This document shows, one piece after another, positions 5,175 through 41,202 of a stretch of DNA of 64,000 nt (within the stretch, counting starts at the first letter, position 1; the number at the start of each line of letters is the position of its first letter). Location of the stretch: positions 1 to 64,000 of the forward strand of contig JACPHA010000019.1 in the NCBI GenBank assembly GCA_016188825.1. Direction: 5' to 3'. The notes beneath the pieces are model-generated. The model was not told the DNA's origin and did no database searches. It saw only the letters and a program-made list of their open reading frames with translations. This DNA comes from Candidatus Pacearchaeota archaeon. GTDB lineage: Archaea; Nanobdellota; Nanobdellia; Pacearchaeales; GW2011-AR1. Made by a program: the position numbers and the translations under genes.

Positions 5175-5384
5175 TATTATTATAAAGAGGACTTAATAAT
5201 TATTAATGGGAGTCAAAAATAATAACCAATGAAGATTCTTTGTTTTCAATCATTACTAATAATTTACGAAGATAAATATTTACATTAATCATAACCAAGA
5301 CATGCAATTAATTATCTAGAACGAAATGTATGCTCTCTGCTAATTTTTCTTTACACTTCTTTATACATCAGAATGTATGATTCA

Positions 5385-15414: not shown

Positions 15415-15510
15415 ATGATAAACATGACTTTGGCTATTCCGGAAGAATTATTCAGAAGAATGAAAGGATTTAGCGAGATAAGAAGTAGAAGATTTGGAAA
15501 TTATGAATAA
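15415..15510 (+). pseudogene. N-terminal remnant of a VapB-like antitoxin
   Basis: A 31-codon frame starts MINMTLAIPEELFRRMKG, which looks like the start of archaeal VapB-type antitoxins. It loses the expected pattern after FSEIR and stops soon after. A hairpin cluster begins five bases past the stop, and a C-terminal antitoxin-like piece follows at 15683-15778. I read it as one antitoxin gene split by the hairpins. Confidence 0.5.
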
Positions 15511-15514
15511 AATA

Positions 15515-15696
15515 TAGAGAGTTTTGACAAACCCTAAAAATCTTCAAAACTCTCTAAGAAGGACTTTGAAAAAATCAGAAAAATAGAGGTTATTCAAAGT
15601 CCTCTATAGTGAAAGACGCAAGTTTTTTACCAATTTTGTGCGTCTTTCCCTTGATAGTCAATGACGAAACGGGAAATTATTAATGTCTTTGACTAT
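15515..15696. repeat. Cluster of four consecutive hairpins inside antitoxin remnants
   Basis: Stems: TAGAGAGTTTTGA (15515-15527/15544-15556, 13 bp perfect), AGGACTTTGAA (15560-15570/15593-15603, 11 bp), GAAAGACGCA (15611-15620/15639-15648, 10 bp) and ATAGTCAA (15654-15661/15689-15696, 8 bp, continued by GAC/GTC after one mismatch). Loops are 16-27 bases. Four unrelated perfect stems in 182 bases are far from chance. Confidence 0.85.
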
Positions 15697-15778
15697 AGCA
15701 TCGAAAAGCAAATTGAGTGAGAGAGGTGTTGAAGAGATAAGTAAAAGAATAAAAAGCGGCGCGGCTAAGAAGTTTTAA
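15683..15778 (+). pseudogene. C-terminal remnant of a VapB-like antitoxin
   Basis: A 31-residue frame, MSLTIASKSKLSERGVEE and then ISKRIKSGAAKKF, looks like the tail of archaeal VapB antitoxins. It overlaps the methyltransferase start by one base (TAATG), so it could still be translated and coupled to that gene. Together with 15415-15510 it probably represents one gene interrupted by the hairpin cluster; no vapC follows. Confidence 0.45.
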
Positions 15779-16428
15779 TGGAAGATTCAAGTTACTGGGA
15801 GATTGAGCCGAACGAAATAGTTATAAGGACATGCGAGCATATCAAGTCTGGAAATGCTCTTGATTTGGGTTGTGGGGAAGGCAGAGATGCGGCTTTTTTA
15901 ACAAAAAAAGGATTTGATGTTTTAGCTGTTGATTCTTCGGCAAGGGGAATACATAAAGCAGAGCAACTGGCAAAAATTCATAAATTAAAAATCAAAACAA
16001 GAATTGAGGATATTATCGACCTCTCTCTAAACAAGAACTTTGACTTGATATTGTGCAATAATGTTTTGCATTTTCTTGATTTTAAGAATGTGAAAAAAGT
16101 AATTGAGAAAATGAAAAAACATACTAAAATTGGAGGATTAAATGTTATAAGTGCTTTTATAGAAAATTCTGGAAGATATATGACAATTTGTCCAGAATTT
16201 TCTAATAAGACAATTTCTATTTTTAGTCACGCAGGTCACGAAATTGTCTATAATGAGATGAATGATAAAAAAGGATTTGCTTTTTTATTTAAAGAAAATC
16301 AGCTTAAAGAATTTTATAGGGAATGGGACATAATTCATTATAAAGAGCTTACAACAGGAATTGAGCAGCATGATTTTACAAAACTACGCAGGCATGGAAT
16401 TTCGGAGATTATTGCGAGGATTAAGTAA
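15778..16428 (+). CDS. SAM-dependent methyltransferase (class I)
   Basis: A 216-residue class I methyltransferase. Motif I, ALDLGCGEGRDAAFL (about 28-42), and the acidic residue after VLAVDSS bind S-adenosylmethionine; motif IV is FDLILCNNVLHFL near residue 87. It resembles TehB-like and UbiE-like small-molecule methyltransferases, but the substrate is unknown. It follows the antitoxin remnant with a one-base overlap and is the last gene before a 350-base intergenic repeat. Confidence 0.85.
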   Translation: MEDSSYWEIEPNEIVIRTCEHIKSGNALDLGCGEGRDAAFLTKKGFDVLAVDSSARGIHKAEQLAKIHKLKIKTRIEDIIDLSLNKNFDLILCNNVLHFLDFKNVKKVIEKMKKHTKIGGLNVISAFIENSGRYMTICPEFSNKTISIFSHAGHEIVYNEMNDKKGFAFLFKENQLKEFYREWDIIHYKELTTGIEQHDFTKLRRHGISEIIARIK

Positions 16429-41000: not shown

Positions 41001-41132
41001 ATGAAAAATGTAATAACCTGTAGAGGCTTAAGAAATTATGTTGGTGAAATTGTAATTCTGACTAGGGATGATAATATCAAAAAGTCCTTGTGTGTGTTTG
41101 GACTTTTGGACACCAAGAATTCTGACAATTAA
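41001..41132 (+). CDS. Possible small protein, 43 residues
   Basis: A frame starting MKNVITCRGLRNYVGEIVIL begins one base after the upstream gene's stop. Its second half runs into the hairpin cluster at 41080, so it too may be a gene whose end was replaced by the hairpins. No homologue recognised. Confidence 0.35.
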   Translation: MKNVITCRGLRNYVGEIVILTRDDNIKKSLCVFGLLDTKNSDN

Positions 41133-41202
41133 ATTCTTGGGTGTGCTCAAGAATTGGAAATTCTTGACATGTTCAAGGAACTTCTGTCAAGTTCCTTGAC
41201 AT
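41080..41202. repeat. Cluster of four consecutive hairpins
   Basis: Stems: AAAAGTCC (41080-41087/41100-41107), ACACC-AAGAATT (41110-41121/41132-41144, one bulged G), TCAAGAATT (41147-41155/41159-41167, loop GGA) and TCAAGGAACTT (41173-41183/41189-41199, extended by ATG/CAT beyond one bulged T). The last two look like a duplicated unit, CAAGnA...CTTGACAT, whose stems differ by changes on both strands that keep pairing. Confidence 0.85.

What the first reader, a model, noticed from the sequence alone, without database searches (positions are those of the whole stretch)
15515..15696. Hairpin cluster interrupts a VapB-like antitoxin gene
Four perfect or near-perfect hairpins with unrelated stems (13, 11, 10 and 8+3 bp) sit back to back. 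Upstream is a frame that starts like a VapB antitoxin and fails after FSEIR; downstream is a frame that looks like the antitoxin's tail (IASKSKLSERGVEE). The cluster takes the place of about 20 expected central residues. Hairpins and broken frames are seen; insertion is inference.
Basis: partly seen in the sequence, partly recalled or inferred. Interest (0 to 1): 0.72.

Follow-up and report, generated by a model that had tools for sequence, protein, structure and literature searches.

The report
Double-hairpin jumping DNA in a Pacearchaeote
The four hairpins are two small mobile DNA elements of about 95 bases, present in dozens of copies in this tiny archaeon's genome, that landed side by side in an antitoxin gene; a third one sits next door inside an enzyme gene without breaking its reading frame.

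Summary
In detail: 15513-15697 carries four tandem hairpins and splits a vapB-like reading frame. It is a fused pair of dispersed repeats, A (15513-15608) and B (15605-15697). Each is about 95 bp, starts TATAG, ends CTATA, has imperfect inverted termini of about 24 nt, and folds into two hairpins. Matches to A and B occur at 44 places in the 1.0-Mb genome and in related Pacearchaeota. One A copy elsewhere is 100% identical, so spread was recent. Removing A+B and leaving one TA rejoins ...EIMNK|IASKSKLSERG... exactly, as expected for insertion with a TA target duplication. The gene also has a separate 35-bp deletion, so the cluster does not replace about 20 residues. A third such element, F (16158-16252), lies in frame (31 codons) inside the adjacent TehB-like methyltransferase, and an A copy lies in frame in a tRNA-guanine transglycosylase gene. 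Best explanation: non-autonomous (MITE-like) elements moved by an IS630/Tc1-mariner-type transposase. IS630s of the same class have TATAGA ends, and families E and H closely match their termini; A and B share little beyond TATAG. IS630 ends lack the hairpins, and no IS630 was found in this genus. New variant of a known kind.

The parts
15513..15608 (+). Element A (96 bp including flanking TA's): TATAGAGAG...CCTCTATA; two hairpins 15515-15556 (13 bp) and 15560-15603 (11 bp)
   Evidence: 100% copy at C3:8212-8308 and 99% copy at C19:1394-1490 of the same genome with unrelated flanks
15605..15697 (+). Element B (93 bp including flanking TA's): TATAGTGAAAGAC...GTCTTTGACTATA; two hairpins 15611-15648 (10 bp) and 15654-15696; shares the CTATAG junction with A
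   Evidence: relatives in other genera at 65-75% identity with compensatory stem changes
15513..15514 (.). Left TA of the inferred target duplication
   Evidence: empty-site comparison
15696..15697 (.). Right TA of the inferred target duplication
   Evidence: empty-site comparison
15415..15483 (+). vapB-like N-terminal fragment MINMTLAIPEELFRRMKGFSEIR
15481..15484 (+). Scar of a separate 35-bp deletion (4 nt where homologues have 13 codons), shifts frame
   Evidence: alignment to intact VapB in L118, L122, L124
15485..15514 (+). vapB-like middle VEDLEIMNKI in frame +1, directly before element A
15698..15778 (+). vapB-like C-terminal fragment ASKSKLSERGVEEISKRIKSGAAKKF-stop
15778..16428 (+). 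TehB-like SAM methyltransferase gene (TehB Pfam E 8.8e-34), intact frame of 216 aa, starts on the last base of the vapB stop codon
16158..16252 (+). Element F, same architecture (hairpins 16160-16204, 14 bp; 16208-16249, 10 bp), inserted in frame in the methyltransferase (net +93 bp = 31 codons)
41054..41151 (+). Family D: another repeated pair of hairpins, at least 15 copies in this genome; termini not TATAG, so relation to A/B/F not established

Best explanation
The cluster is a composite A+B of two MITE-like, non-autonomous mobile elements that inserted once, as a unit, at a TA in an already or later decayed vapB gene. Shown: dispersed copies with constant ends and unrelated flanks; a clean TA-flanked empty site; two hairpins per element kept by compensatory changes; the same architecture in several sequence families. 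Inferred: a transposase of the IS630/Tc1-mariner type supplied in trans recognises the inverted termini (about 24 nt), cuts the element out and pastes it at TA dinucleotides, so that TA is duplicated. A+B moves as a unit because its outer ends (A left, B right) are a valid terminal pair. Insertion between genes is tolerated; insertion in a gene either breaks it (vapB) or, when length and frame allow, adds about 30 residues to the protein (TehB-like methyltransferase, tRNA-guanine transglycosylase). The terminal hairpins are a feature of the small elements and are not inherited from the IS630 ends.
For: 44 matches to A/B in 1.0 Mb, with identical or near-identical copies in unrelated flanks. 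Copies in other genomes of the genus and family and in named Pacearchaeota. Clean TA-flanked empty sites at vapB and at the methyltransferase; both rejoin in frame. In TehB structures 6 residues stand where the query has 34. Conserved double hairpin in family B: 94.7% of cells paired, 7 pairs with compensatory change, none of 500 shuffles as high in covariation score, slid controls 35-49% paired. Seven complete IS630s in the same class (1,093-1,119 bp) all begin TATAGA. Sibling double-hairpin families match IS630 termini well beyond TATAG: E 21/28 and 21/28, H 24/28, F 18-19/28; shuffle p 0-0.0003 for E and H, 0.01-0.02 for F. The two genomes of the family with complete IS630s, G029 and G032, also hold A/B-type copies. 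Literature: Tc1/mariner/IS630 elements insert only at TA and duplicate it, and the 24-bp inverted repeats of ISY100 are probably sufficient in cis (PMC2170065).
Against: No IS630 was found in the window's genome (83% complete) or in nine other genomes of the genus, although A copies are 99-100% identical and so moved recently. Beyond TATAG the termini of A and B match known IS630 ends only weakly (A left p 0.045, A right 0.95, B left 0.10, B right 0.23). The TA duplication rests on reading-frame logic at two sites, without a sequenced empty allele of the same species. Full IS630 ends have no comparable hairpins, so the double hairpin is not explained by simple internal deletion.
Confidence: 0.75

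Rival explanations
1. Elements are moved by the IS200/IS605-type single-strand (Y1 HUH) transposases present in this genome, as REP or palindrome-associated elements are; the hairpins are the recognised ends.
For: Y1_Tnp matches exist in this genome (5 places); paired hairpins at both ends superficially resemble IS200/605 ends.
Against: Ends are symmetric inverted termini whose hairpins begin at the element edge; TA is duplicated at two sites, while IS200/605 insertion does not duplicate the target (own knowledge). The repeat shared by two of the local Y1 loci (L014 3819-3906, L015 3002-3091) carries an unrelated hairpin. G009 holds many A copies but only a Y1 fragment.
Confidence: 0.1
2. Same kind of non-autonomous element, but the mobiliser of A and B is a different, unrecognised TA-targeting transposase; only families E, F and H belong to IS630.
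For: No IS630 in the genus; weak match of A/B termini to IS630 beyond TATAG; DDE_Tnp_1 transposases occur in some genus members, though not in this genome.
Against: A, B, F and H share size, architecture and TATAG ends, and E nearly so; parsimony favours one mobiliser type.
Confidence: 0.2
3. A structured RNA or regulatory/terminator element kept for function rather than a mobile element.
For: Conserved stems with covariation; mostly between genes.
Against: Copies lie at unrelated sites, also inside coding frames and inside an antitoxin gene; no Rfam family; patchy presence among close relatives.
Confidence: 0.04

Closest known systems
RUP (repeat unit of pneumococcus) and BOX, Streptococcus pneumoniae
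   Same: About 107-bp AT-rich repeat with inverted termini similar to IS630-Spn1, proposed to be moved in trans; extensive secondary structure; clusters and insertion into one another (PMC3049150)
   Different: Different organism and sequence; the IS630-Spn1 partner is common in pneumococcus, whereas none is found in this genus; several sequence families share one two-hairpin plan here
Rickettsia palindromic elements (RPE)
   Same: Palindromic, about 100-150 bp, several families, insertions in frame in unrelated genes adding a peptide (review PMC10969869)
   Different: RPEs are often inside genes; here only 2 well-supported in-frame cases among 45 inspected element copies
Correia elements, Neisseria
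   Same: Small MITE with inverted termini, many copies, TA-flanked TATAG-type ends (ends from own knowledge)
   Different: Not described as two hairpins in tandem; sequence not compared here
Double-hairpin and repetitive hairpin-forming elements of mitochondrial genomes
   Same: Two or three tandem hairpins, mobile, mostly intergenic, sometimes in genes (PMC2800124)
   Different: No link to a transposase or TA duplication was seen in the passages read; organellar
IS200/IS605-derived palindromic elements (REP/PATE)
   Same: Hairpin at each end
   Different: Here symmetric inverted termini, TA duplication and hairpins flush with the ends

Membership tests
MITE (prokaryotic) | Short, non-coding, multicopy, dispersed | tested here: met
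   about 93-97 bp; 44 matches for A/B in 1.0 Mb
MITE (prokaryotic) | Terminal inverted repeats | tested here: met
   About 24 nt imperfect in A and B, first five bases near 100%
MITE (prokaryotic) | Target-site duplication | tested here: met
   TA at two coding sites by frame restoration; no sequenced empty allele of the same species
MITE of the IS630/Tc1-mariner type | Termini matching an autonomous IS630 | tested here: inconclusive
   E and H clearly, F moderately; A and B only TATAG plus weak similarity
MITE of the IS630/Tc1-mariner type | Autonomous partner in the same genome | tested here: not met
   No DDE_3 or IS630 homologue in 10 genomes of the genus; own genome only 83% complete
MITE of the IS630/Tc1-mariner type | Mobilised by IS630 transposase in an assay | not testable with these tools
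   needs experiment
IS200/IS605-derived element | No target duplication, subterminal hairpins | tested here: not met
   TA duplication; hairpin of A starts at the third base of the TATAG terminus
Rickettsia palindromic element-like (way of working) | In-frame insertion in unrelated genes | tested here: met
   TehB-like methyltransferase, tgt; minority of copies
VapB antitoxin gene | Intact reading frame with a VapC toxin downstream | tested here: not met
   Frame broken twice; relatives have a PIN-like (VapC) frame downstream, here the methyltransferase follows directly
Known structured RNA (Rfam) | Match at gathering score | tested here: not met
   only tRNAs and 5S rRNA in the window

The most novel reading that the evidence does not exclude
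Pacearchaeota carry a super-family of transposable elements whose building block is the hairpin: each end of an IS630-type minimal element has acquired its own inverted copy, and hairpins are joined, swapped and nested (A+B, a 44-nt module inside A and a related one inside B, an A-type hairpin with a foreign partner in G032), giving self-folding elements that can spread even through protein-coding genes.
Probability: 0.3. Interest if true: 0.65.

Novelty: new variant of a known kind. Interest (0 to 1): 0.5.

Why it matters
No description of such elements in DPANN archaea was found in the papers searched. Genomes of about 1 Mb are expected to be streamlined, yet here dozens of recent copies of several small-element families sit between and inside genes, including an in-frame insert in a tRNA-modification gene. 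The recurrent double-hairpin plan, absent from the matching IS630 ends, raises a testable question: does hairpin formation help transposition or make insertions tolerable? It also warns annotators that 30-residue insertions in Pacearchaeal proteins can be element-derived.

Tried and rejected
IS200/605 origin considered and set aside (ends unlike). IS4/IS5-type DDE_Tnp_1: none in the window's genome. Presence in viruses: exact patterns for A and B gave no match in IMG/VR. Pfam does not recognise the short vapB fragments, so homologues were found by protein search with the gap masked. An IS630 carrying A or B termini was sought in 378 genomes of the class and not found. Direct insertion of A into the terminal TA of B was considered for the fused pair; it would leave an extra TA that is not seen, so propagation of A+B as a unit is preferred. 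First alignments had some copies in the wrong orientation and were replaced. The tgt alignments were partly wrong (own sequence out of frame; L131 omitted); the conclusion uses the PDB alignment and the match ranges.

Full report
Observation. The four hairpins and the split vapB-like frame are real. The stretch folds far better than shuffles (z -7.9). A scan for 'TATAG, hairpin, hairpin, CTATA' finds three units in the window and none in shuffles: A 15513-15608, B 15605-15697 and, 460 bp downstream, F 16158-16252.

What it is. A search of the window's own genome gives 44 places matching A or B. Some are A alone, some B alone, and some A+B joined through a shared CTATAG; flanks are unrelated. 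One A copy is 100% and another 99% identical over 95-98 bp, so spread is recent. Copies occur in other genomes of the genus and family, patchily, and in named Pacearchaeota such as RIFCSPHIGHO2_01_FULL_37_14 and BMS3Abin17. One genus member, G006, carries the contig named Candidatus Pacearchaeota archaeon NC_groundwater_1202 (same length and match position), so the window is from a Pacearchaeote.

Anatomy. Every element has the same plan: TATAG terminus, hairpin 1, short linker, hairpin 2, CTATA terminus, with outer arms forming imperfect inverted termini of about 24 nt. In family B, across 15 copies from several genera, 94.7% of stem cells pair, seven pairs show compensatory changes, and the covariation score exceeds all 500 shuffles; sliding the partner by 1-3 columns drops pairing to 35-49%. 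Family A is less variable and gives four such pairs. Families E, F and H differ in sequence but keep the plan, E with slightly different terminal bases and H with a weaker second hairpin in the one copy measured.

The vapB gene. Intact homologues in the same family read ...EIKWSEIARQAIEQRINDLEVMNRIASKSKL... and are followed by a PIN-like (VapC) frame. In the window 13 codons between EI and VEDLE are reduced to 4 nt (a 35-bp deletion, frame +1), then VEDLEIMNKI runs into element A. Joining the flanks with one TA gives EVEDLEIMNKIASKSKLSERGVEEISKRIKSGAAKKF-stop without a break. So the insertion is clean, with TA duplicated, and the deletion is a second lesion; their order is unknown. No VapC-like frame follows: the methyltransferase starts on the vapB stop codon.

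Insertions inside proteins. F adds 31 codons in frame to the TehB-like methyltransferase: solved TehB proteins have 6 residues where this one has 34, and leaving one TA restores S-A-F-N-E-M-N-D-K-K-G-F. An A copy lies in frame in a tRNA-guanine transglycosylase gene (C4, 432 aa): the best homologue in the genus, G007, aligns to residues 11-126 and 159-430, skipping the element. An F copy in G009 lies near the end of a 174-aa frame. Such cases are a minority: of 45 copies of families A, B, D, E and F in the fetched stretches, two are well supported as in-frame insertions in recognised genes, and a few more lie in open frames whose gene status was not checked.

Mechanism. TA duplication and inverted termini point to an IS630/Tc1-mariner-type transposase acting in trans. 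Tc1/mariner/IS630 elements insert at TA and duplicate it, and the 24-bp inverted repeats of ISY100 are probably enough in cis (PMC2170065). Seven complete IS630 copies found in the class are 1,093-1,119 bp long and all begin TATAGA. Families E and H match their termini closely (21-24 of 28; p at most 0.0003) and F moderately (p 0.01-0.02). A and B match little beyond TATAG. The IS630 ends score at most 7 for a terminal hairpin, against 9-14 for both ends of A, B, E and F, so the double hairpin is a property of the small elements. Weak points: no IS630 in the ten genomes of the genus, although the A copies are young; and the target duplication is inferred from frames rather than from a sequenced empty allele.

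Comparison. It works most like RUP of pneumococcus (an IS630-related MITE with structure, found in clusters; PMC3049150), with occasional RPE-like in-frame insertions (PMC10969869). It is filed as MITE-like. Membership in the IS630 type is likely but not met on the autonomous-partner test and inconclusive on the termini of A and B.

Verdict. A real, recently mobile, structured small element; new variant of a known kind. Interest is moderate: the repeated double-hairpin plan and the invasion of genes in a minimal archaeal genome are unusual, while the basic process is familiar.

Noticed in passing
41054-41199: Family D: hairpins of the TCAAGAA/TTCTTGA and AAAAGTCC/GGACTTTT type, at least 15 copies in this genome at 92-100% identity. 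In G006, G001, G009, G017 and G031 the separate hairpins occur in chains with other hairpins, some nested in loops. No TATAG ends; may be a different class of repeat.
   Followed up: partly
L016 2985-3028, L017 3069-3113, L018 10070-10114, L028 3275-3319: A 44-nt two-hairpin module (TCAAAGAACAAGTTCTTTGATACATTCAACTTGGAAGTTGAAGTC) sits at one fixed place inside six A copies; a related longer module sits in the linker of several B copies. Not inserted at TA; mechanism unexplained.
   Followed up: partly
L049 1480-1700 (G032): Chain of hairpins in which the A-type second hairpin is joined to a hairpin of another family, suggesting exchange of hairpin units.
   Followed up: partly
L020 2854-2941: A-type element in frame in a tRNA-guanine transglycosylase gene, encoding YKEFRKTPKLSKKDFERKRQNSRLFKVLY.
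   Followed up: yes
L017 2936-3028: Another TATAG double-hairpin unit (TATAGGAAATAAC...GCAATTTGCTATA) fused to an A copy through the same CTATAG junction as A+B.
   Followed up: no
5226-5322: Window stretch with a similar copy at L016 6802-6901; nature not determined.
   Followed up: no
15415-15778: The vapBC-type module is decayed: antitoxin gene broken twice and no PIN-domain frame directly downstream, unlike relatives.
   Followed up: yes
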